This document shows, one piece after another, positions 10,102 through 59,536 of a stretch of DNA of 64,000 nucleotides. The stretch is from Rhizoclosmatium globosum (lineage: Eukaryota; Chytridiomycota; Chytridiomycetes; Chytridiales; Chytriomycetaceae). The stretch covers positions 434,001 to 498,000 of the forward strand of contig MCGO01000001.1 in NCBI GenBank assembly GCA_002104985.1. Direction: 5' to 3'. Made by a program: the position numbers and the translations under genes. The notes beneath the pieces are model-generated. The model worked only from the letters and a program-made list of their open reading frames with translations. It was not told where the DNA came from and ran no database searches. The first letter of the stretch is position 1. Each line of letters starts with the position of its first letter.

Positions 10102-11577
10102 TCAGCACTGCTGCAAGAACATGAAACACATTTGGTTTGGATCTGCGCAACTCCAGCTATCCTTGCAAGATGGAAGTCCACAAGTTTCGTTTGCATAACC
10201 CCAAGTACCAGCACAACGAGCGGCCCATTGGTGCTCAGTAGTAAATGGACCTTGTGGAGGGTACCCACTACCAACTTTCTCGCCGTTCAACGCCCTGCGG
10301 AGAATCTGGGAGTAGTTTGATGGAAGAGACGGGGATGGGTTGGAGCTGGAAACATCGTACACAGAAATTCCATAGAACTGTGGGTCATTGTAAACCTCGT
10401 CCAACACAGCCTGCAACTGTCCGGGGTTCAAGAAACCACCTGTAATCGCACTTGTATCGTCCCCAGCCAATCCAATCACCAAATTGCCCTTGAAAATATT
10501 GGTCCATTGTGGGAAATTGAAACCGAAAGGATAGGAGCACGTTGGGTTGTTGTAGTACTGAATAATCACGTAGTCGAACAATTCTGGGTTGGACTTGATC
10601 AATGGTCCAGTGTTGAAATCCATATCGACTCCATTCAAGAAACATTGTGGAACGGCAGCAATAATGAGCTTGGGATTCAGTTGCTTGAGTGTCTGCAACA
10701 AGATCAATTGCTCGTTGTTGTCAACTGGCTTCTCAATGTCTGACTCGATCCCATCCAAAGTCACATTTCCGAAAGGACGAGCCGGTGAGGAACCGCCCAA
10801 GAAAGAGTTGTGCAAGATGTTGGCAACGCGCAAACCGTCGTTGGCAACAAGAGTGTATGGAGAATGCATATCTCCCCCAATGGAAAGGACAACCTTGATT
10901 CCCTTCGACTGGCAGTATTTGATATCCTCTCCAACCTTCAAGAAGCCATCGGTCTGTTTCGGATTATCTTGTCAGCCAAAATCACTTCCATCTCCCAAAA
11001 CACAAAACTTACACTAATAGGAGTTCCATCCAAGTTAGCACTGATACCGCCATTCTCATCCACCTCATAACGCCCCAAACTCGCAAGATCAAGACCCCAG
11101 GCATTACCACTTCCAAACTTGTAGAAGAAGGCAAGGTTCATGGTTTGATAGTAGCCCAAGTCACAGTAGTACTTGAGAGACTTCTGAGCATCGCTGTTTG
11201 GAATAGTACGAGTTCCGAGCCCCAATGGGCCGACTCCGTTGCCTTAAGTGAGTTTGTGATTAGACACAATCTAACTCTTTCCCCCTTATAATGTGTCTAG
11301 ACATACCGATAGCGTTTTGACCCCAGTATCCAAAGAGCTTCTTGGATGAGTTTGGAAGGTTGGATGGCGAGGATCCAGCGGATGCAGTGGTAGTTGCATT
11401 TCCGGCGGACGAAGGGGATGATGAGGACGAGTCGTTCTTGTTCTTGGTCACAAAGTATCCGACCAATGCAGCAGCAACGATCAAGATTACCACGGCAACG
11501 GCGATGAGGATGTTGCGGTTACGACGGCGCTTGTGGTCATCGGTTTGTTGGGGGTCTTTCACCTCAAATCGTTCCAT
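10102..11577 (-). CDS. Membrane-anchored GH18 chitinase-like protein (copy A)
   Basis: Exons 11577-11307, 11242-11013 and 10953-10102 give 450 residues. Residues ~1-22 are basic and cytosolic (KRRRNRN), ~23-43 form one membrane helix, and a Ser/Thr/Asn linker follows, so the enzyme faces outward as a type II protein. The GH18 barrel begins at LFGYWGQNAIG, as in class III chitinases. It has the beta-3 strand VVLSIGGD, the catalytic strand LDGIESDIE and the substrate strand VIIQYYN. The catalytic Glu is present, but the second Asp of the usual DGxDxDxE motif is Glu. A Cys-rich tail (~45 residues, 7 Cys) closes the protein. Likely role: cleavage of chitin at the cell surface. Copies B and C follow in tandem with the same intron positions. 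Confidence 0.9.
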
Positions 11578-11731
11578 TTCCGTGAAAGAAATGAAATGAA
11601 TCTTCTGATTGACATACTAATATTGATTGATTGCCTTGTTAACGGCTTATTAGCCAGAAAGAACATAAACGATTCCGCAGTCATAGAACAAGGCATTCAT
11701 GATTCTATTCAAATAATGAGGAAGAGGAAAA

Positions 11732-13201
11732 TCAACAGGAACTGAGGAAACTGAAACACATCATTTTTGGATCCGCACAAGACCAAACATTCTTGCATGA
11801 CACAAGTCCACAAGTCTCATTTGCGTAATTCCAGGTAGGGCCGCACCGAGCATCCCAATCCCACATAGTCGTAAAGTTACCTTGCGGTCCATATCCGCTG
11901 CCAACCTTATCCCCATTCAAAGCCTTACGCAAAGTCAAGGAATAATTCGTGTTCAATGATGGCGATGGGTTGGAGCTAGAGACATCGTAGACAGAGATTC
12001 CGTAAAACTGAGGGTCGTTCTTAAACTCGTCCACAACGGCTTGAAGCATTGGAGGAGGTAAGAAACCGCCTGTAATCGCAGAGGTGACGTCTCCAGCCAG
12101 GCCGACAACAAGAGGTCCGCTGTAAAGTGCCTTCCAACGGTTGAAATTGAATCCGAAGGGATAACTGCACGATGGGTTGTTATAGTACTGGATAATAACG
12201 TAATCGAGCAATTCAGGAACAGCCTTGATAACAGGACCAGTGTTAATGTCCATACCCAAACCTCCGTTCAAATAGCACTGAGGAACCGCGGAGAGAATGA
12301 TTTTTGGAGATAATTGCTTGAGAGTTTGCAAGAAAATGATTTGTTCTTGAGTGTATGCTGAATCCGTCTTTTCAACATCCAATTCAATTCCATCAAGTAC
12401 GGCGGTTCCAAAAGGACGAGTTGCTGATTTTCCATCCAAAAAAGCATTGTATAAGACGTTGGCGAGTCTTGCGCCATCACCAGCAATGAATTGATATGGA
12501 GAATGCATATCTCCACCAAGGGAAAGCACGACCTTGATTCCTTTGGCCTGGCAATGCTTGATATCGTCTCCGACTTTCAAAAATACATCCGGCTAAGACA
12601 TAATGGTTAATATTGATTAACTTAAACCATCAGAGTGACAAGACTTACACTGATGGGGATTTGCTCCCAACTCGTTGTGACCACACCATTCGCATCCACT
12701 TCATATCGTCCAAGCGATGATAAATCAAGACCCCAGTGAGAATCGCCGCCTCCAAAAGCATACAAGAAAGCGATATTCATAGTCTGGTAGTATCCCAGAT
12801 CACAGTAGTATGCAAGTGGCTTCTGCTGATCGCTGTTTGGAATTAGACGAGTTCCTGTGCCATTAAGGCCAACACCGTTTCCTGCAAGGGTAGGGGTTAG
12901 GGTCTTGCTTTGATTGATTTCAATTTGGGTGCTCACCGATAGCGCTTTGTCCCCAGTAGCCAAAGAGCTTCTTGTTTGACAATGGCAAAGGCGAAGCTGA
13001 AACTCCAGCAGTAGGGTTGGCAGTGGCAGTGGCATTGTTTGAAGTTGAGGAGGATCCACTGCCGCTGTTGTTCTGGGTCACGAAGTAGGCAACCAACGCA
13101 GCGGCAACAATCAAAACAACGACTGCCACGCCGATGATGATGTTGCGATTGCGGCGGCGTTTGTCGTGGTCGACGGTCTCCTTAACTTCGACTTCACTCA
13201 T
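11732..13201 (-). CDS. Membrane-anchored GH18 chitinase-like protein (copy B)
   Basis: Exons 13201-12937, 12881-12649 and 12592-11732 give 452 residues. The architecture equals copy A: a short cytosolic KRRRNRN stretch, one membrane helix, a Ser/Thr linker, the GH18 barrel starting at LFGYWGQSAIG, and a Cys-rich tail ending in SSC. The catalytic strand reads DGIELDVE, with the proton donor Glu kept and Glu at the middle Asp site. It differs from A and C in its PDVFLKV third-exon start and in carrying an extra Gly-Leu at the NGGLGMD loop. The three genes share intron phases, so they come from tandem duplication. A local CCCTAACCCC run at about 12887-12903 lies inside intron 1 and is not a telomere. 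Confidence 0.9.
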
Positions 13202-13263
13202 TTGGAGGAGAGTTTTTGATTAGTCACTGTATCTTACTCCGTTTATTTTTAAATTAAATTAAA

Positions 13264-14746
13264 TCAGCATTGTTGTAAGAACATGAAACACATCTTGGTT
13301 GGGTCGGCGCAACTCCAGTTGTCCTTACAAGAATCCAAGCTACAAGTTTCATTTGCGTAGCCCCACGTTCCCGCACAACGAGCCGCCCATTGATGCTCAG
13401 TTGTAAAGTTTCCCTGCGGTGGGTAACCACTGCCGACACGCTCACCATTCAATGCCTTACGAAGGGTCTGAGAATATGTTGACGGTAATGATGGAGACGG
13501 GTTGGAGCTGGAAACATCATAAACTGATATTCCATAAAATTGTGGATCTTTGTAGACTTGATCCAACACTGCTTGTAGTTGTCCTGGATTCAGGAATCCT
13601 CCTGTAATAGCACTTGTGTCGTCACCGGCAAGTCCAATCACCAAGCTTCCCTTGAAGATATTGGTCCATTCAGGATAATTAAAGCCAAACGGATACGAGC
13701 AGGTTGGGTTGTTGTAGTACTGGATAATGACGTAATCAAATAATTCAGGATTTGACTTGATTACTGGTCCCGTGTTGTAATCCATACCGACTCCATTCAA
13801 AAAGCACTGAGGCACGGCAGAGAAGATACTCTTTGGAGACAGCTGTTTAAGGGTTTGGAGAAGAATGACTTGTTCCGATGTGAAAGATGGACCTGTTTTC
13901 TCGATGTCCAGTTCAACGCCATCAAGTATAGCGCTACCGTAGGGACGAGCCGATGAATTTCCTTGAAGAAAGGAGTTGTAGATTATATTGGCGAGTCTGG
14001 CCCCATCTCCTGGAATCAAGTTGTATGGGGAATGCATGTCTCCACCAATTGAGAGAACCACCTTGATCCCATTAGATTGACAATATTGAATATCTTTTCC
14101 AACTTGGAGGAACGCGTCCGTCTGTAGGTCACGTTACGTCAGTTCAATTCAGGGTTTGAGGAAACCAAAACAGAAACCTACACTGATGGGGGTTCCTTCG
14201 AAATTTGCGCTAATGCCACCAGCTGCATCTACTTCATATCGACCCAACGATGAATGATCAAGTCCCCAGTGTACATCTCCACCCCCAAACTTGTACAGGA
14301 AGGCCAGGTTCATGACATCATAATACCCCAAATCACAATAATACGCCAATCCTTTTTGCTGTTCACTTGCAGGAATAGGTCGCGTTCCAAGTCCCAGTGG
14401 ACCAACGTAGTTCCCTATGTGACAGGTGTCAACTCCGATTCGTACTTTAAAGCGGCAAAGCAATCTCACCAACGGCACTCTGGCCCCAGTATCCAAAGAG
14501 TTTCTTAGCAGAGTTGCGTGTTATAGATGGTGTGGAAGTGTTTGTGGGAGTAGTTGGACTTGTTGAGATAGTGACATTGCTTGGACTTGATGAGCTGTTG
14601 TTCTTTGGGATAAAGTATCCTAGCAAGGCCGAGATGATGATCAAGGCAACAACTAGCACTCCAATTAAGACGATCCTTCGACGGCGTCCCTTTGTGACGG
14701 AGGGAGCAGGAACCTTGCTGTCGAGTCGATCATTCAAAAGGTCCAT
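13264..14746 (-). CDS. Membrane-anchored GH18 chitinase-like protein (copy C)
   Basis: Exons 14746-14470, 14414-14182 and 14121-13264 give 455 residues. A basic segment (KGRRRRI) precedes one membrane helix at about residues 27-47, and a Ser/Thr/Pro linker leads to the GH18 barrel at LFGYWGQSAVG. VVLSIGGD, DGVELDIE and VIIQYYN mark the barrel strands. The donor Glu is present with the same Asp-to-Glu change as in A and B. The Cys-rich tail ends in MFLQQC like copy A, and the third exon is closer to A than to B by eye. It is probably a surface chitinase or lysozyme-like hydrolase. It is the first of the three tandem genes in transcription order. Confidence 0.9.
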
Positions 14747-15159
14747 TCGTGTGTTTTGCGGCTGAACTTTGATGAGAAAATCATTCCACTTCCTCTAGAC
14801 TTTTGTATACGTCATTTATTTGGAAAATTATCAACGAGTAGAATAGTAACATTCATGGGAATTGTTCGTCGATTGCCATTCCCAGGAAGATGAGCTTGTC
14901 GACCTAAAGTCAGAATGGTCTGATAATTTTGTGTTCATTCCGAACTTCTCTTTCAAGTGCGGAGCAGGAAAAGTGGACGCTGGAATACGAAGTTACAAAG
15001 TTGGGAGGCCAGCACAATGACATTCTTTGCAGCGATCCGTAATATGATTGCGTTATTTCCTGGATCAAGAACCTTAATTTATAGAGTAGAACAAATTGAA
15101 ATTAAACTATCGTATTCACTATTTACATGGGCTTAATAAAGTATTAAACCCTCAGTGAC
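14747..15159. other. Intergenic region upstream of GH18 copy C
   Basis: About 410 bases, AT-rich, with no supported gene, RNA or repeat. It should contain the promoter of the first GH18 gene, which is transcribed leftward from 14746. Confidence 0.4.
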
Positions 15160-37189: not shown

Positions 37190-37915
37190 GTGTGGTTGAT
37201 CCCAAGATTATCATTTTGCCTATTATTTGGTTTACAGTGTTGTTCCAAAATGAAGAAATTATTTTTTCTTTCGCATTTAAATTATTCAGTCATTAATCCA
37301 CAAAAATACACATAGAGATGGAAAGGAAGGGGCAGAGCGAAACTCACGTGTTTATTCTGGTTCAAGATCAAAGTAGGATAAATACGGCTAAATGCATATT
37401 CTCCAGAATCAAATCCTCCAAATTGGAGGTGAGGAAGGGCCAGCTATTGCAGCTGCCTTCCTCCAGTTGTCACCAAAGTCACTTCTTCACTAAAGGTCCT
37501 CCCATTTGTTTCAAGCAACCACCCGCAATCTTTCACCCAGCGTCACAAAATGAATGTGAGACGATCTTTGCAAGGCTGATTGATAAATTGACAACTTTGA
37601 ATAGGCCGCCCCAAGTACTGCAGCGTTGGTGATAGAAAGGGTTGAATGCTCCTTTGTTCGCTTTTACCTCACTGCTTGCAGTGAAAACCCACTTTACACT
37701 CCGAATTAACGTCCATCTGCTTTGGCAAGGGCAGGAGTGTCGATGACAACGTACAGTCGTAAGTGTGTTGTTTTGGCTTAACCTCAGCTTAACCACCTTT
37801 GCTAATGTTCTTCTTTTGTGATATACATAGTATTAGATTTATGTGAAAAGTACATGAATAAAGGTGAAGCGTGCCCCAAAATTGGCAACCAGAAACTTCA
37901 ATCGAAAAGCAGCCG
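37190..37915. other. Intergenic region between ZIP3 and ZIP4
   Basis: About 730 bases, the longest gap in the ZIP group. It contains only short frames without motifs. It should carry the ZIP4 promoter; no repeat or RNA is seen. Confidence 0.4.
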
Positions 37916-49275: not shown

Positions 49276-50321
49276 TTGGATTAAGTTTATTTCAGAGATA
49301 ATGAATACGGCATTGAAGAAGACAAAGAATTACATCCACAATGGTTCAGGCTTGACATATCCAGGCTCAGCTTTGACTTTCGAATGCGCATGGTCTGGTT
49401 GTCTCAACACGTTTTTGATTACAGCGGAATCAATTAAAAACGTAGTGATATCTGTGCGATTCGCTGTCAGAACGAGATCATCGATTTTGGGCAAGACACT
49501 GAAGTTACTTCCGACTTGATCAAAGTCAATATTCTTGATGGCAGCTTTCAATGCAAACGAACCCTATACAAGTTTCAAGGTTAGTTATTACATGAGAACT
49601 AGGCAGTTATACCGTAGAAGTATTTTGAATGAAGTTTTTCAATTCTGTGATGGCTTCAACTAGTTTTCCACATTCCTCGGTCGTCAAGTCACAATCTGAA
49701 TCCCAGACAATCTCTACAGAACGCAACAACTCTGCTGCATAGCGCGAGACCATCACTTTGACGTCGGCTGCAAACTTGGTCAACATAGAAACAAGTGCAC
49801 TCTTCATCACTGTCAAACTTGTGCGGAACATAGTCATCCTCTTTTGTTCAACTTCACGCTGCATAATCGCCTTCAACCTCGCCACACATCCAGTTCCGCG
49901 TTCCGCACCTCCCAACGTATACCCCACAGTCAACGATTGACGAATCGAGCGAGAAACAAGTTTCCACGATTGTCGTTGAGTCAAATCAATGTCGCGTTCA
50001 ACTACTTTTAACATATCCGTGAGTTGCAATTCAAAGCCTCGTCTCACTCCTTGAACAAGGTCAGCCGAGAGTGATAATCCGTTTTCTTCAACTTGAACTC
50101 CAATTTTTTCGATAACATTATCGGCTATTTTGGAACAATCCCCTACAAGGCGCTTTAAAATCTTGGCCACGCCAGTTCCAAAAATATCTCGCCAAGTGAT
50201 TAAACTAGTTTCCATCATAGGAGCCGCAAGAGAATCATTGACATTCAAATATCCTGCTGTTGGGGAAGTGTACTCGCCACTGCGTCTGATGCAAGCGCGA
50301 TATGTTGCCCAATGGAACTTA

Positions 50322-50343
50322 GGCCCCGTTCAGTGAGAAAAAA
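50322..50343 (+). repeat. Left terminal inverted repeat of the Harbinger element
   Basis: The 22-nt left end begins GGCCCCGTTCAGTGAG and pairs with the right end, with two mismatches (positions 13 and 17). TTA at 50319-50321 directly precedes it. Confidence 0.92.
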
Positions 50344-50389
50344 TTGCTATTTGTTTGGTGGTGATTTATGTGAATTTATCAAAATTTAT

Positions 50390-50545
50390 GGACTGGCTAT
50401 TTATCAATAAACTGTTTATTAGAAATAAACTGAAAAAGCTGTTTATGTCAAATAAACTATTTATCAATAAATCGTTTTTTTCACAAATTCCATAAACAGT
50501 TTATCACAATCCATAAATAGCCATAAATTCCATAAATTCCATAAG
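50390..50545. repeat. Left subterminal repeats (TTTATCAATAAA words)
   Basis: The AT-rich stretch repeats ATTTATCAATAAA and its relatives (for example TTTATTAGAAATAAAC, CCATAAATTCC) several times in both orientations. Such clustered words near transposon ends usually bind the transposon's Myb-like protein or transposase. The right end carries the same words. Confidence 0.75.
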
Positions 50546-50673
50546 TAGCTCTGGACCAGCTTTTGGACCTATTTTTTCCCCCTTCAACCATAAACAACAA
50601 ACACCAACAACTTTTTCGGATCTACTGACAGCAGTTTATTGGGTATTCATAAAGAAAACAACAGATTTTCCAA

Positions 50674-51967
50674 CTAGCCTGCCAACTCCGCATCATACAA
50701 ATCATGCAAGTACTCAACTGCAGCTTGATCGTTCGGAAGACCAAAAAACATTGCTGCGTGGACAGGTGCTTTGTCAAAGACTTGGCAGTACCGGAATAGC
50801 AAACGCGGGCTCAGCCAGTTACACTCCATACCGCTATATTTTCCATTCAACCTCGTAAGAAGCGATCCCAAGTGCTGAGAAACACGAAGTGACAGCTGAT
50901 GGACTTCAGGAATGGCTGAGAAACGATCTTTGGTAGCAGTAGTGGGCGGTGGTGAGTCACGGTTGTACAGGGCCATAGCGTTTTCAAGGCCGCGCTCAAT
51001 TTCAGCAAACTGGTCCGCCTTGTCATAATGCGCTCGTTTTGGTCGCTCGCCATTCTGAGTTTCGGCGCTAAGTCGCTTGTGGAGCGGCAAAACAGCGGCA
51101 GAGTTTGTAGAGGAATTCAACTGCAAGGGAGACATAACCACAGACGAGTTTGAAGAGTCAGGAGTCGACCAAGATGAAGATCTAGATGTAGATCCAGAAG
51201 TGGCAGTGGAAGAGGATTCATAGGTGGCAAGGGTGGTAGGAGGAGGAAGCGCAGGCATACCACTGTCCTCGTTGTCAGTGGTGCCATTCTCATCTGCAGA
51301 CTGAATAGAGGACGCAGCAAATCGACCAGAGGCTAGGTTCTTCCCATAGAGGTCATTCAGCAAGTTGAAGTTTGGACATCCTTTGACAATCAGACTGCGC
51401 ACGAGGCTCTTCTCTGCTGAAGATTTCAAGGACTGAAAGAATGAATGTTAGCTACAGAATATAATGCAACCAATCACATACATCGCAAAATGCCGAAACT
51501 ACGTCTACGTTTGCGGTCGGAGCACAAATAGCCTCGTTCCAACCCCATCCACTCAGTCCTTCCAACTTTACAGTCATGGAAAGTGTACTCTTTAACGTGT
51601 TAAACTTGTTCTTGACTTGAAGAACTGATAGATTCATAGAGAAGGTGGAGTTCAAATCATTGGTGACTGAAGTCCACGCCTCAGGTTTAAAGCCAGTCCC
51701 GGCACGTTTCCCATCCACAGCCTGTAGGAGCATTCGGTTGAGGGCAAATGTTGTTCGCTCTGGACTCCACTTTGCGCTTTCTGTTGAGTTGGTAGGAGTG
51801 GTTGTGGTAGCGACAAGAACAGGAGTTATGTTGGGAGCCAGAACAGATGGCAACGGAACACCTGGAGTAGTGCTTGCTATTGGCAGAGTCACAGGAGCGG
51901 TAGATGGTGATGCTGCTGCCGCCACTTCATTCTCGTTGGGGACTGCCTTCTTCTGTCTTGGAGCCAT
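50674..51967 (-). CDS. Harbinger Myb/SANT-like DNA-binding protein
   Basis: Two exons, 51967-51482 and 51432-50674 (intron 49 nt), give 414 residues. A Ser/Thr/Pro/Val-rich lead is followed at ~residue 65 by a trihelix Myb/SANT-like fold: KWSPERTTFALNRML, GKRAGTGFKPEAWTSV, VKNKFNTLKS, and a GWGWNEA turn. This matches the Myb_DNA-bind_3 type common in fungal and plant elements. The C-terminal half has Ser/Thr-rich linkers, a KRAHYDK segment and a helical end. In PIF/Harbinger elements this second protein brings the transposase to the nucleus and to the ends. The gene runs opposite to the transposase. Confidence 0.85.
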
Positions 51968-52115
51968 TGGAGAAAACTTCAGCACAGATGAAGACAAGAA
52001 GGAAAGCGGCCTGAAAATTTTCTCATACAGCCACACAGACACAATGTCAAACCTCATGCTGTTATTGAAAACCCCGCCTTCTAACATTGCGCAGTTTCTT
52101 GTACAGTACAGAGCA

Positions 52116-53466
52116 ATGTATTGTTTGCAATCACTAAAGAGATGGGCTTGTACGAAAATTCCATCTCCAGCTGCACATTTTCATTTCAGTGTCTTCAAAA
52201 TTCTTCGAAACATGCATGCTCGGGAGCGACGACGTGCACTTGCCAAGACCATCCTTGCGTCCACTATCACCCAAACAAAGCTACTTCTGCAGCGTTGGAA
52301 ATCAAGATTCTGCAAAACTCGCAGACACACCTCAATACTGACAGGTGCAATGTGGATTGAAGAGCTGCGTAAGGGACACAAGTCACGGATGCATGACAGC
52401 CTTCGCATGGATGTTGCCACCTTTGAGTGAGTGATTCATATTCTTGCCCTTTACTGATTGAAGCAATAGCTCTCTTGTGTTATTGTTGGCTCAAACTGGC
52501 AAGTTACCTCGTTCTCGTCAATTGAAGCCGTCTGAGCAGGTTGCGATTTTCCTCTTCATTGTCGGGGGTAACAACTCGAATCGTCCAACACAAGAGCGTT
52601 TCCAACGAGCTCCGGCTACTATTTCTCGCTCTTTTCACGGTGTCTTGGCAGCGTTGTTGCATCTTCAACCACGATTTATGACTCTGCCAACAGCTGACTC
52701 GCCTGAACCTGCCGTTCTTCTAAGCAACAAGTACAAACATTTCAAAGGATGTTTGGGAGCAATGGATGGGACCCACGTGAATGCATTTGTTGCAGAAGCG
52801 GAAAGTGCTCCATTTCGCAGCCGGAAGGGAACACTATCACAAAACGTGTTGGGAGTCTGTTGTTTCAGCATGTTGTTTTTGTTTGTATTCGCTGGTTGGG
52901 AGGGATCGGCACATGACGGGCGGGTGTTCGATGATGCTCAGCGTAAAGGGTTTGACATTCCGTCTGGTCGGTTCTACTTGGGTGATGCTGGTTATTCCCT
53001 CTCCAAGTCAGTCTTGGTGCCTTATCGGGGGGTACGCTATCATTTGAAAGAGTTCGCTCAAGCACGTGATCGCCGGTGAGTAATGATGTAACTTCAATCA
53101 CAACTAATCAAAACAAGACCCCAAAATTCCCAGGAGCTCTTCAACCTTAGGCACGCATCTCTTCGGAATGTTATTGAGCGGATATTTGGCTGCATGGCAA
53201 AGCGGTTCCCAATCCTGAAGTCAATGCGCCCTTATTCGTTTAGCACACAACGGGACCTTGCTATTGCCCTTCCTATTCTTTTCAACATAATTCGCAGCTT
53301 TGGCAAGGATTCTTTTGTGGATGAAGCGATTGTGGAGCAAACAGAGGCATTTGGGGAAGAGGATGTGGATGAGGATGAGCAGGGAGAGGCAGAAACCTGG
53401 CGAGACAGTATTGCAAACGCTATGTGGGTTGATTACCAGAGAGTGCTTCGAGACAGAAGACAATAA
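52116..53466 (+). CDS. PIF/Harbinger DDE transposase (HARBI1-like)
   Basis: Exons 52116-52426, 52470-53075 and 53118-53466 (introns 43 and 42 nt) give 421 residues. After a basic N-terminal helix region, the catalytic Asp 1 lies in GAMDGTHV, Asp 2 in WEGSAHDGRVFDDA, and the Glu in NVIERIFGCMAKRFPIL. The spacing and neighbours are those of HARBI1. The YLGDAGY and N-x-R-HAS segments also match. All three catalytic acids are present, the frame is open and the splice sites are canonical. It should cut at the element's ends and insert at TTA or TAA. The start ATG at 52116 is the first useful one in frame. Confidence 0.94.
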
Positions 53467-53509
53467 ACTGTATTTTCCTCATAACCACTATGTTCATACC
53501 AATTTATTC

Positions 53510-53665
53510 AGTTTCTTAAAATTTATGGTTGTTTATGGCTATTTATGGCCGGAATTTATCAATAAACAGCTCTGAGCTATTTATCAATAAACAGGGAAAG
53601 CGAATTTATTGATAAATAGGCATTTCAGAAAATAAACAGTTTATTGATAAATAGGCCAAAAACTG
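53510..53665. repeat. Right subterminal repeats (TTTATCAATAAA words)
   Basis: The AT-rich region repeats TTTATCAATAAACAG and its reverse form TTTATTGATAAATAGG four or more times, mirroring the left subterminal block. It begins just after the transposase stop at 53466. Confidence 0.75.
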
Positions 53666-53687
53666 TTTTTGCTCGCTGAACGGGGCC
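53666..53687 (-). repeat. Right terminal inverted repeat of the Harbinger element
   Basis: Read on the minus strand, the 22-nt end begins GGCCCCGTTCAGCGAG and pairs with 50322-50343. TTA at 53688-53690 directly follows it and equals the left flank. Confidence 0.92.
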
Positions 53688-56600
53688 TTATTTTCGATAT
53701 TGCTGAGATTTTTACGAGCAGAGTGTCTTGCTTTTTCATCACCAACGGCAAGAGTTTCTTTCAAGGGACCGTCAAGAAGTACCGATTGAAGCCTAACTTT
53801 GGTTTTCTCAACCGCAACTGACAGATTACTGCCAACATCCGTATTCAAAGTGATAATACTTCGACTCAATTTGAGTTGCTGAGAAGGAGTAGCACGCTTT
53901 GGAAGAGTAAGGTATTGAATGACTGAAGAAAGGAGCAAATCAATGCGATCGGTCCTATCCGCCTCTGCATTGATTCTCGACACAAGCAAATTCTGTCGGC
54001 AAAAGTTGAAGAGTTGAGGAACACCGGTTTGATCTGTGGTATAGAAAGCTGCGGCATCCTGTGTACGATTTCTGCATAGAACCTTGTAGTCTCGACTTGA
54101 AACAGTAAAAACTGGGAGAAGTGGAATTTCGATATCCGCTGAAGTTAAACTCGATTCTATGATTTCTCTGATTCCATCAGTGAAGTCTTGACGAAGCTGT
54201 ATGCGGGCAAATTCGTTTCTTGCCAATGCACAGTACTGATTGATAATATGTTCACGTTGTTTAACTTCTTGTGATAGTTTACTGAGAGCCTTGTTGACCT
54301 CTGTTATATTTTTTGACAGTCTGGTGGATAGAGGAATAAGTTTGCGAAGAGGTGTACGGTCTGCACCGTCCGAGTCTTCTTCAATCTTGTTGATCTTCTT
54401 TCTGACGGACTTCAGTTTCCGCTCGTAAGAGGCATGCTTTTTGGCGGCAGCCGAAATTTTCTTGTTGATTTCCTTGATGATTGGCCGTTGTGTTTTGATG
54501 GTATCGGAAATAACCTCTTTCGAGAAGCCTGAATAAGCCGAGACACCTTCAAGACCAAGTTCGGATAGAACTTTGAAGCATTCGAGGTCATCAGTCTGAG
54601 TTGCAGCAAATGCGATGGATCCCATTCTTCCGTCTGCCATTTATGTTTAGTAAGTATGAATCAAAGGAAGTTACCTACCAATGAATAACTGGCGTCTAAA
54701 TTGACGACCCAGGAGGTCCTTGGCAGTCTTGTTATCGACAGCACTAAAAATTACACTCAACAAGATATTAATAGGCATGCTTCAACTTACCGTTTGATTG
54801 GTGCAGCAATCAAGAATCCAGTACATTTCGTGAGAAACGCCTCAACGACAGCATTTCTGGCAGCATTTGCATCTTGTAATCCAGGTAAATCCAGCAAACG
54901 ACCACCTGAATCTGCCAACAACGGGAACGGCCCTGAGAGTACAGCGTACTTAACAATAGGCCAGAGACGTCCGACTTCACTTTCAAGAATCACATCGCTC
55001 CTAGAAGTTTTTGATGACACAAATGCTTCCAATCGCGATCGTATCCCTTCCTCTGTTGAAGCTCGTAGTGTAACGACAGACCCTAACCTGCCTTCCATCA
55101 ATCCACCCTTTCGTGTCAACTCATCAAACGTGGCGATTCGGCCATACACTGACATAACCTTGTCATACGCAATTCTCCCATTTTCAGAGCTGGGACGCAT
55201 CATGTTTTTCTTGAGGTTTCCGTTCTCGTCAGCCAAATCACCAAGTAAGAGCTCCAATTCCGGATACCATTCGTCCTTCTTGAGAAATTCAACTTTGGCT
55301 TCGAATTCTCTGCTTGCATGATATGCAATTTCTATAGGAGCTGCAGTACATGCTCGTGCACCAGAAACGGGGAGAATCCCATCGGATTTGGGTACCAGGA
55401 GTGCGTTAAGCAAGGAGCTTTTTCTATAAATCGTGTCAGCGTGTAAATTGAAGTGGAAGTAAGACATACCCTGAGCCCGAATCTCCAAGAACAGCAATCA
55501 TCGCGGCCCCAGCGTTGCCATTTGAACCAGTTGCCGTAGCAGTGCTCGTGTTTGAGTCAACAAGTTCTTGTACTTGACTTTTCCAAATTTGAATTCGTCT
55601 ATCACTTGCCACAGTCTTCTGTCCTTGAACACATGAGATAGAATCAATAAACTTCGACAGCGTCGCAGCAGCAACATTGTTTGTCTTGATGACTTTGTTC
55701 AAGTAAACGGTTCTTTCTTGAAGTGATTGCGTTGAAGATTCCACCCTCGATTGCCGAAGCTCCTCAATTTCCTTCGCCTCTCGTTCCATTCGCTGGCGAA
55801 GCGCTTCCGGAGCAATATCTTCTCCGTCATCAGCACGATCATCTTGCATAATTTGCGTCAAGAAATCATTCAACTTTTCCTGAGCCTCAGAAGTAGCCGC
55901 CAAGTCATTGTTACCGCCTTCGCCCTCCTCCATCAACTCCTCATCGTTTTCCTCATCGTCATCGTCGTGTTCATACGATGTGGTTCCCCTCTTTTTCTTG
56001 GAAGCAAACGCCTTCAACATTTCCTGTTTCGCCTCAACCTGAACACTGTCATCCACTTCTGCATAATCCCATAATACATCCAACAAGGCAGGAATACCTG
56101 TTGCTTCCACGTTCAAAAATGTTGGACTGATACTCGCGCTTCCACCACCTTCACGCATAATCATATCATAGCTGATGGAGCTAACACAGAAAACCTGCAA
56201 CTGCGTGACGCCATAATGTAGATCCAACGCATTCGCTTGTGCCAAAATATCTGCCATATCTTGCGTATACTGCCTACGGAGACCATCCGCCACAAATCCA
56301 TTTCTCGCTGTCACACAAGAGTGTCGCAACATTCTCGAAATTCGAGCAATGTTGTTTTCAATCGCTTCATCAACGGGTATCCCATTCTTCTGCATCATTC
56401 CAACTTTTTTTTTATAGTCCTCCAACGTTTCAAGTGCCTTCTTTGCATAAACTTTGGTTGTTCCGTTATCATCGTGTCCATCTGATTCCCGAACGAAGAG
56501 AGGAACAGGCGTATTTACCATTTCACACCCTACTTTCCAAAACTTGACAAAATCGCCTTCCAATTCATCTACAATTTCTCGCGGATCCACAGAATCGCTG

Positions 56601-59118
56601 TGGGTGGCAACAAACCCAACGTAGCTCAGGTTACCGTTCTTAATATTTTCACGAACAAGGTCTGAAAGTAGCAGGTCTTTAGTAACCTTGTTGTCCTGAG
56701 CACGAGTGATAGGAGCCACAGCAAGGAGCGCGTTGCAGTTGGAAATATAGTGGGACACAACTTGGTTTCTGGCGGAATTTTCATCTCCGAGACCTATGCA
56801 GTTTAAATACAAACTTTGGCGAAGGTTACAATACAAACCTGGTAAATCAACAAGAACTAGTCCTCCTGACAACAAACCCCAAGGTCCATAAACACAAGCC
56901 CGCTTTACAAGAGGCCAAATGGAACTCGAAGTTTGAACGGCGCTAGATTTTCTGGTCGTGGTTGCAAGAAACCTCGCAATTCGTCGCGAGATGATGGCAG
57001 GCTTATTCGCACTAAAGCGAATCGTTTTTGAAAGATGCGACAGAGTAGCTTGATACTTGAGATTCTTTGATTCTTGTTCATACTCCTCAAACGTTGTGTG
57101 GGCAGGGGATCCGCCAAGAACCGCTTTCACAGAGGCAAGAGCTCGCGTTGCTTCATTCTCGGCACCATCACCATCAAAGAAGGCTTCAAGAGCAGCAGCA
57201 CGTTGTTCAGGATCACTGTCGTCCCCGTCGTTGCTGAGTGTGGCTTGCAGTTTGGCAGCACGATCAGCCTTCTCCTTATTACAGGTGGCTGCATTTTTGA
57301 GCATATCGCTCCATTCGTTGGATGTTACAAACTCAATAGTAGCCGTGTAAAGACAGTTGTCTTCCTCTTCCTCGTCATCCTTGATGGTGTCAATGTTTGG
57401 ATCAAAAGCTAGGATCTCATCCAATTCATTATCATCGTCTTCATCGTCCTCGTTTTCACCATCATCTTTATCCGTTGTCTCGATTTTCGCAAGTGAAGGC
57501 GGCTTTTTGTATCGAATTTCGACAACGACAGCAGTACAAGCATGCACTGTTATGTTAAAGTTTAGATTATGAATCATGAGAGTATGGTAATATACTCAAC
57601 TTGAGGACGTTGGTAGAATATTGCAACCATTCAGCAACGCATTCAACACAGTACTTTTGCCAGCGCCTGTTGGTCCACAAATTCCGAAAAAGTATTCGTT
57701 CGTTGTTGGAGCTTCTTCAGAATCTGATTCGTTCTCGGACTCCCCACTGTCCGATTGATCAATCGGATCATAATCCCCCTCATTAGTATTAATCTCATGA
57801 GAATTACTCTCTTTCTCGACGTTATTTGTGTTTGAATCACTTTCTACGTCATTATCTGTGTTGTTTCATAAGAAATTACCATCAGACATTATCGCACTCA
57901 CTGGACGTTCCCGACTCCATAACAGTGCTTGATGCTCGTGAACCGCTTCTAGATGACGTGTTTGCATTTTCTTCTGACGAAGAGGGCTCATCAGGGGAAT
58001 AAGATGGACGAGTCGAGGAAGGCATCGTTGAACCCATAGCTGACGACGAAATATCATCAGGGGTCCTATCGTCTGATTGGTCCGCCGAATTGTCACCATC
58101 TTCAGTTTCGCTAGCATTAGAGTCTTCTTCTGTTACAACGAAAAAAGTAAGAAGTTTGATCTTGAAATAATTGAACTTTACCAGATGCCGCCTTTGCAGC
58201 TGCGACAAGTGCGCCAATCAAAGAACGTCTTGACGGAGTGTTGTCTTCATTGTTCGACCGGATGACTTGTTTCTCTGGTGTAGAATCTCGTTGAATAGCT
58301 GTCGCCGAACTAGAAGCCAAGACTGTCAATTCCACTGCAGTAGTATGCGGTACTTGCTTTGTTACGGAATCGTCATCAGTTACCGAAGTTCCTTCAAGAA
58401 TAAGAGATTGAACATTCGATGCGAGAGTAAGTTTGGCAACCAGGGGACTAAGAGGCTGAGTAGTGGTGGTCGAAGGTTCTCTTGAGGCAGTAGGGGTATG
58501 AAAAGTAGTGCGTGGTTCACTTGCGTCACTTGGAATGGGAGTGAACTCTCGTGTGTTACTTTGTGGTAAGTGAACTGGTAACTGATTAACAACAATTCTT
58601 AAGTGCTTCAAAGACCTACTCTCCGTTGAGACGCCTTTTCCGTTGATGCTTCCAGCAATATCTGATGGTTGCGGCTGGGGAGGTACTGACTCATTGTTTC
58701 CAGAACTTGATAAGATCGTTGGCACAGGTCGATCACGATCGCCAACGTCCTCGGAATCCATCCTGCGTTTCTTTTTCGGAGAGTCATTGTCGGGGTCGTC
58801 TCTGTCGCGTTTCCAGTGGTTCCCGTCTTTGAAGTGTTGGACGGCGGCACCGAGAATCTTCCGTTCCGCAAACGAGGCGGCGGGAAAGAGATCGGCGATG
58901 TCGGCCTTGTCGAGCGCGGCAAACACGCGCGCATTCAGTTGCTCGGCCTCGATCGTTTCGCGCACCAAACCCACTTTCGATGCCGCAATCGTCGGGAAGT
59001 TGGCCGTCAGCGCCGCGCACACGAATTCAGCGACGGACGACGGCGTTTCGGCGGTGGCGAGCTGTGATTGGTTGGTTCGGTTGTTGGTGGTGGTGGCTGT
59101 CAAAAGTACGGACACTGG

Positions 59119-59508: not shown

Positions 59509-59536
59509 AATAGCCACTACAGTATTTTGAAACGTT

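What the first reader, a model, noticed from the sequence alone, without database searches (positions are those of the whole stretch)
50319..53690. Intact Harbinger element inserted in a coding exon, with the empty site readable
The sequence shows matched 22-nt inverted ends, a TTA duplication, and open Myb-like and transposase genes. The host exon around it (54633-49613) contains exactly 3369 extra bases (element plus one TTA). Without them the exon keeps phase, and SLIP-GC-like conserved residues run straight across the junction. This points to a very recent insertion, perhaps polymorphic in the population, and an element that may still move.
Basis: partly seen in the sequence, partly recalled or inferred. 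Interest (0 to 1): 0.82.

Follow-up and report, generated by a model that had tools for sequence, protein, structure and literature searches.

The report
Recently inserted Harbinger transposon in chytrid
An intact-looking two-gene Harbinger jumping gene sits in the middle of a large GTPase gene of the chytrid fungus Rhizoclosmatium globosum, and a second, nearly identical copy of that gene in the same genome lacks it, so the jump was probably recent.

Summary
Window 50322-53687 is a 3366-bp PIF/Harbinger element with 22-nt inverted ends (20 of 22 paired) and a TTA duplication. It has an open 445-aa DDE transposase and an open 414-aa Myb/SANT protein. It splits one exon of a Dynamin_N/DUF7605 (SLIP-GC-like) gene, and the exon reads in frame without it. 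The genome is Rhizoclosmatium globosum.
The tools added the decisive fact. Contig C396 of the same assembly, colinear with the window, carries the empty site with a single TTA. The copies differ there by 1 substitution in 1276 aligned bases, against 2.88% over 43 kb. The insertion is therefore younger than the local split of the two copies, unless C396 was emptied by precise excision. C396 is most likely the other haplotype; a large segmental duplication is not excluded.
Elsewhere lie a second copy (0 substitutions in 607 aligned bases) cut by a contig end, and nine 1.4-1.65 kb elements with the same ends but other interiors. For four of those nine an empty counterpart locus was found.
Everything fits ordinary cut-and-paste Harbinger biology with cross-mobilised non-autonomous partners: a well-documented new member of a known kind. 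Present-day activity is inferred, not shown.

The parts
50319..50321 (.). left copy of the TTA target-site duplication
   Evidence: single TTA at the empty site C396:163118-163120
50322..50343 (+). left terminal inverted repeat (22 nt, 91% complementary to the right end)
   Evidence: pair I4; motif count in the genome
50397..50544 (.). left subterminal AT-rich repeats (TTTATCAATAAAC / CCATAAATT units), candidate binding sites for the Myb protein (inferred)
   Evidence: families D1, D2, D4, D5
50674..51967 (-). Myb/SANT-like protein gene (ORF1), exons 51967-51482 and 51432-50674, 414 aa
   Evidence: PF12776 E 1.6e-8
52044..53466 (+). DDE transposase gene, exons 52044-52426, 52470-53075, 53118-53466, 445 aa; candidate catalytic residues D227, D300, E350
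   Evidence: (PF13359 E 3.5e-21)
53512..53656 (.). right subterminal AT-rich repeats, largely inverted relative to the left set
   Evidence: D1, D6, D7, I1, I8
53666..53687 (-). right terminal inverted repeat
   Evidence: I4
53688..53690 (.). right copy of the TTA target-site duplication
53691..54633 (-). 5' part of the interrupted host exon (Dynamin_N/DUF7605, SLIP-GC-like gene)
49613..50318 (-). 3' part of the interrupted host exon
49330..59046 (-). modelled extent of the host gene (nine exons; N-terminus not settled; probable further 42-bp intron at 58618-58577, by eye)

Best explanation
An autonomous PIF/Harbinger element of Rhizoclosmatium globosum inserted by cut-and-paste at a TTA inside an exon of a large Dynamin_N/DUF7605 GTPase gene, on one of two near-identical homologous copies of the region (most likely the two haplotypes of this strain), and the other copy still shows the empty site. 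By analogy with Ping/Pong, the Myb-like protein would bind the end regions and bring the DDE transposase, which cuts the element out and joins it to a 3-bp staggered TTA/TAA target; the gap fill makes the duplication. The insertion ends the host protein 26 residues into the element and removes the last 312 modelled residues, including nearly all of DUF7605. The same proteins probably also move the 1.4-1.65 kb elements that carry only the ends. Shown here: structure, open frames, empty copy, related copies, and the order of events (insertion after the local split of the two copies, unless a precise excision emptied C396). Inferred: allelism, protein roles, cross-mobilisation, present activity.
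For: TIR, TTA duplication and both open genes. D227, D300 and E350 invariant in 9 aligned transposases. Empty site on C396 with one TTA: left flank of 989 bp with 2 substitutions and one gap (shown as 100%), right flank 98% over 4510 bp, junction letters. C396 colinear with window 16393-64000 apart from the element and two other length differences, and with 11000-15000. Substitutions 1247 of 43,293 overall (2.2% if the divergent 19-21 kb stretch is left out, median of windows 2.0%), 1 of 1276 around the site. Second copy C339: 0 substitutions in 607 aligned bases, three one-base insertions, different flank. Nine complete non-autonomous copies with both ends; 8 of 10 complete copies, the window's included, have identical 3-bp duplications. 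Joined flanks: contiguous empty counterpart for 4 of 9 two-sided sites. Public annotation P0001 ends in 26 element-encoded residues. Precise excision, 3-bp TSD and the need for both proteins in rice Ping/Pong: PMC2836001, passages seen.
Against: No reads, expression data or second isolate were available. Whether C396 is the other haplotype is undecided: the chaperonin-family search (PF00118) gave matches on 17 contigs, with two near-equal groups by eye (C168/C20 and C35/C5/C111) and most others without an obvious twin, so the assembly is at least not plainly doubled throughout. Of nine two-sided sites four have no counterpart at all. An empty site can also arise by precise excision. Only one full-length autonomous copy is assembled; the C339 copy is cut by the contig end after 610 bp. 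The 1276-base window was chosen after seeing the differences.
Confidence: 0.87

Rival explanations
1. The empty C396 copy is a paralogous segmental duplication, not the other allele; the insertion is then in the C1 copy only and the strain need not be heterozygous for it.
For: Several second copies of flanks have very different identities, 92-100%, and some sites have more than two copies. The assembly is not plainly doubled (inconclusive). C1, C396 and the R. hyalinum protein are about equally distant: 11, 8 and 8 differing residues of 779 compared.
Against: Colinearity runs through all of the window that was compared (11000-15000 and 16393-64000), introns and intergenic DNA included, as haplotigs do. 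C396 carries 116 one-base deletions against 17 in C1, as might be expected of a thinly covered alternative contig.
Confidence: 0.28
2. The element was once in both copies and was precisely excised from C396, so the empty site says nothing about the age of the insertion.
For: PIF/Harbinger excision is usually perfect, removing the element and one TSD (PMC2836001, passages). The lowest-divergence tract of the alignment spans the site, which a double-strand break repaired from the homolog could produce.
Against: Needs more steps than a single insertion; no trace of the element in C396 at the site. If true it would itself show recent activity.
Confidence: 0.12
3. The element in C1 is an assembly chimera and its real flanks lie elsewhere.
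For: Another contig (C339) begins inside the same sequence, so the assembler had repeats to confuse.
Against: Matching TTA on both sides and exact restoration of the exon frame and of the C396 sequence after removal would be coincidences.
Confidence: 0.03

Closest known systems
Ping/Pong and mPing of rice (PIF/Harbinger)
   Same: Two separate genes (Myb-like ORF1 and DDE transposase), 3-bp TTA/TAA duplication, non-autonomous elements mobilised by the pair (PMC2836001, passages).
   Different: Host is a chytrid; the partner elements are 1.4-1.65 kb with unrelated interiors rather than short MITEs (size of MITEs recalled). Transposition not demonstrated here.
Harbinger transposons of animals (teleost fish)
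   Same: DDE transposase plus Myb/SANT-like protein, TIRs, 3-bp TSD (PMC9179366, passages).
   Different: TIR of 22 nt with two mismatches here; 25-50 bp is stated as usual in that paper.
DDE_Tnp_4 proteins of Chytriomyces confervae (P0051, P0052)
   Same: Top two database relatives of the transposase, 62% and 58% identity over 62% of the query.
   Different: Seen only as predicted proteins; their ends and any second gene were not examined.
Diverged relatives in the same genome (C44, C405)
   Same: Transposase homologs at 61-62% identity over most of their length, 48% in one stretch.
   Different: No end motif of this family was found on those contigs.

Membership tests
PIF/Harbinger superfamily | DDE transposase of the DDE_Tnp_4/HARBI1 kind with catalytic triad | tested here: met
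   PF13359 E 3.5e-21; D227, D300, E350 invariant in 9 sequences
PIF/Harbinger superfamily | second gene with Myb/SANT-like domain | tested here: met
   PF12776 E 1.6e-8, above its cut-off
PIF/Harbinger superfamily | terminal inverted repeats | tested here: met
   22 nt, 91% complementary
PIF/Harbinger superfamily | 3-bp TTA/TAA target-site duplication | tested here: met
   8 of 10 complete copies identical; 2 of 10 (C398, C381) TTA/TAA mismatched
PIF/Harbinger superfamily | non-autonomous elements sharing the ends | tested here: met
   nine complete copies
PIF/Harbinger superfamily | transposition requires both proteins; precise excision | not testable with these tools
   needs an assay
SLIP-GC-like / Dynamin_N-DUF7605 GTPase (host gene) | Dynamin_N GTPase domain | tested here: met
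   P0001 E 8.1e-13; two stretches in P0003
SLIP-GC-like / Dynamin_N-DUF7605 GTPase (host gene) | C-terminal DUF7605 domain | tested here: met
   met in the empty-site reading (E 9.8e-14); not reported at E up to 0.01 for the annotated filled-site protein P0001
Allelic pair (C1/C396) | half depth on both, segregation | not testable with these tools
   no reads; indirect signs are colinearity (for) and an inconclusive gene count

The most novel reading that the evidence does not exclude
A naturally active two-gene Harbinger is moving now in an early-diverging fungus, driving two groups of non-autonomous partners. The island of near-identity around the insertion records a double-strand break at this site that was repaired from the homologous copy, i.e. 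a footprint of transposition left in the flanks rather than at the junction.
Probability: 0.2. Interest if true: 0.62.

Novelty: new member of a known kind. Interest (0 to 1): 0.42.

Why it matters
Few PIF/Harbinger elements are known to be naturally active: in 2010 PMC2836001 called Ping and Pong the only ones (passages), and a 2019 paper reports a further active rice MITE, mJing (PMC6850418, abstract start in a listing). A candidate with both genes open, an identifiable empty site and partner elements in a laboratory chytrid strain gives a simple test of activity outside plants and animals. It also corrects a public gene model: the deposited protein BCR33DRAFT_5462 ends in transposon sequence.

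Tried and rejected
Considered and rejected: chance inverted ends (25 motif matches against 0 control); decayed host exon (frame open throughout); fixed old insertion (empty copy). The interior of the non-autonomous elements was compared with the autonomous one: only the ends match at the thresholds used; their frames were printed for three of nine and no family search was made of them. The search for a close relative's junction failed: the R. hyalinum protein P0003 (98.3% identical) stops at residue 1338, before the site, and a search with the 518-aa junction piece returned only P0001 and P0004; the Obelidium protein P0004 lacks the residues just before the junction in its model. (16-kb query) did not even list its own place and was not used; one search replaced it with 4 kb. 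The 15-piece test of doubling mixed in repeats and was not used for a rate. A PDB search with the transposase gave only two weak hits to a designed repeat protein (best E 0.0047), not used. Literature: listings (one search showed 12 of 30, one search showed 15 of 16, one search showed 15 of 15,337); passages of PMC12115818, PMC6784888, PMC2836001, PMC9179366 and PMC8476143. None of the titles and abstract starts shown describes a Harbinger element of Rhizoclosmatium, which is no proof of absence.

A stop at codon 149 in the C396 reading lies in a probable unmodelled 42-bp intron (intron by eye). Twelve codons of C396 lack a base. These look like sequence errors (116 one-base deletions against 17; P0003, which aligns without gaps, covers eight of them), so whether C396 encodes a whole protein is left open.

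Full report
The thing itself. Window 50322-53687 is a 3366-bp element flanked by TTA on both sides (50319-50321, 53688-53690). Its ends form a 22-nt inverted repeat, 91% complementary, followed on each side by AT-rich repeats of the type TTTATCAATAAAC, several of them inverted between the two sides. It carries two diverging genes. On the plus strand a three-exon transposase of 445 aa has DDE_Tnp_4 at E 3.5e-21. On the minus strand a two-exon protein of 414 aa has Myb_DNA-bind_3 at E 1.6e-8. Introns were placed by eye on GT-AG signals and by the continuity of the conserved transposase sequence. In an alignment with eight relatives D227, D300 and E350 are invariant; that they are the catalytic triad follows from their motifs as recalled. 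The two-gene plan fits PIF/Harbinger as described in PMC2836001 and PMC9179366 (passages seen). The subterminal repeats as binding sites of the Myb protein are an inference.

Where it is. The best database match of the host gene is BCR33DRAFT_5462 of Rhizoclosmatium globosum on a contig of 1,023,498 bases, the same length as the contig that holds the window. R. globosum is a saprotrophic aquatic chytrid, and strain JEL800 is used as a model (PMC12115818, passages); that this assembly is of JEL800 is recalled, not shown by a call. The host gene runs on the minus strand over at least 59046-49330 in nine modelled exons. The exon 54633-49613 is interrupted. Without the element and one TTA the whole model reads 1987 residues to a single terminal stop; with it the frame ends 26 residues into the element. 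The junction lies a few residues inside a DUF7605 domain that is found in the empty-site reading (E 9.8e-14) and not reported for the deposited protein, which ends in the 26 element-encoded residues. Homologs among unnamed metagenome proteins, other fungi and animals align across the junction. The N-terminus is not settled and one 42-nt stretch of the model is probably an intron.

The empty site. A search of the whole assembly with the flanks found the same place on contig C396: 989 bases of the left flank with 2 substitutions and one gap and 4510 bases of the right flank at 98%, joined by a single TTA. C396 is colinear with the window over 16393-64000 apart from the element and two other length differences, with 1247 substitutions in 43,293 aligned bases (2.88%; 2.2% without the divergent stretch at 19-21 kb; median of windows 2.0%), and over 11000-15000 at 99%. 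Around the insertion the two copies differ by 1 substitution in 1276 aligned bases. Only 6 of 42,018 overlapping windows of that size have at most 1, all starting at 49390-49395; the 300 windows with at most 2 form a single block over 49283-54229. The window size was chosen after seeing the data, so this is a description, not a test. Within the host gene 1 synonymous and 1 nonsynonymous change fall in 49330-54037 against 44 and 39 in the rest, so protein conservation alone does not explain the island. The insertion is therefore younger than the local common ancestor of the two copies, which is itself recent, unless the element was precisely excised from C396.

Allele or duplicate. Colinearity through introns and intergenic DNA is what a second haplotype gives. 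The chaperonin-family search was meant as a test of doubling: matches on 17 contigs, two near-equal groups by eye (C168/C20 and C35/C5/C111), most others without an obvious twin; this is inconclusive. At the 779 residues compared, C1, C396 and the R. hyalinum protein P0003 differ about equally: 11 for C1-hyalinum, 8 for C396-hyalinum, 8 for C1-C396 (counted). I hold allelism at about 0.7. C396 lacks single bases at 116 places where C1 lacks them at 17, which looks like sequence error; hence I do not say whether the C396 copy of the gene is whole.

Family in the genome. The end motif with up to one mismatch occurs 25 times, control 0. Besides the window element there are nine complete copies with both ends, 1375-1649 bp, in two related groups. 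They share about 253 bases of the left end (51 in one copy) and 168 of the right end with the autonomous element, and the interiors differ. A further copy on C339 matches over 607 aligned bases without substitution, with three one-base insertions, in a different flank, and is cut by the contig end. C321 and C224 hold partial or rearranged copies. Of ten complete copies eight have identical 3-bp duplications, and two (C398, C381) have TTA on one side and TAA on the other. Twelve sites were tested for an empty counterpart. Of nine two-sided sites, four have a contiguous counterpart: C43 to C390 at 100%, C398 to C406 at 96%, C404 to C166 at 96% over 154 of 220 bases (and to C10 at 98% over 63), C8 to C380 at 92%. 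One (C152) lies in a repeat with unoccupied copies, and four (C361, two on C377, C381) have no counterpart across the junction. Of three one-sided sites, all have second copies of the flank (C339 to C357 at 98%, C321 to C242 at 100%, C224 to C359 at 93%), but the other side could not be checked. None of C390, C406, C166, C10, C380, C357, C242 and C359 appears among the element matches, whose counts are lower bounds.

How it works, and how sure. Shown: structure, open frames, empty copy, relatives with the same ends. Inferred from Ping/Pong: binding of the ends by the Myb protein, cutting by the DDE protein, staggered 3-bp joining, cross-mobilisation of the 1.4-1.65 kb elements. Not shown: expression, movement, polymorphism among isolates.

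Verdict. As a kind of thing it is ordinary: a young two-gene Harbinger with non-autonomous partners. Its value lies in the clear empty site, the dating by the flanks, and the candidate for activity in an early-diverging fungus.

Noticed in passing
window 49390-54037 against C396: The lowest-divergence stretch of the C1/C396 alignment spans the insertion (1 substitution in 1276 sites). Possible conversion tract; unexplained.
   Followed up: partly
L032 (C398) and L038 (C381): Two copies have TTA on the left and TAA on the right (in element orientation) instead of an identical duplication.
   Followed up: no
window 37216-37850: About 635 bases present in the window but absent from C396 at the same place.
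   Followed up: no
window 59527-59536 / C396:168953-170450: About 1.5 kb present in C396 and absent from the window, next to what looks by eye like a tRNA gene.
   Followed up: no
C396:130001-174928 against window 16393-64000: One-base deletions are about seven times as common in C396 as in C1 (116 against 17), as in a poorly polished contig.
   Followed up: partly
public protein BCR33DRAFT_5462 (P0001): The deposited gene model ends in 26 residues encoded by the transposon.
   Followed up: yes
L039 (C377:847292-848844): This non-autonomous copy has only 51 bases of the usual left end, then sequence that includes the repeat into which the C152 copy inserted.
   Followed up: no
L034 (C224:102863-105912): Left and right ends of the family lie about 2.9 kb apart in an orientation that suggests rearrangement or two elements.
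   Followed up: no
C44:9596-10764 and C405:6818-8068: A second group of transposases, mostly 61-62% identical, without this family's end motif.
   Followed up: no
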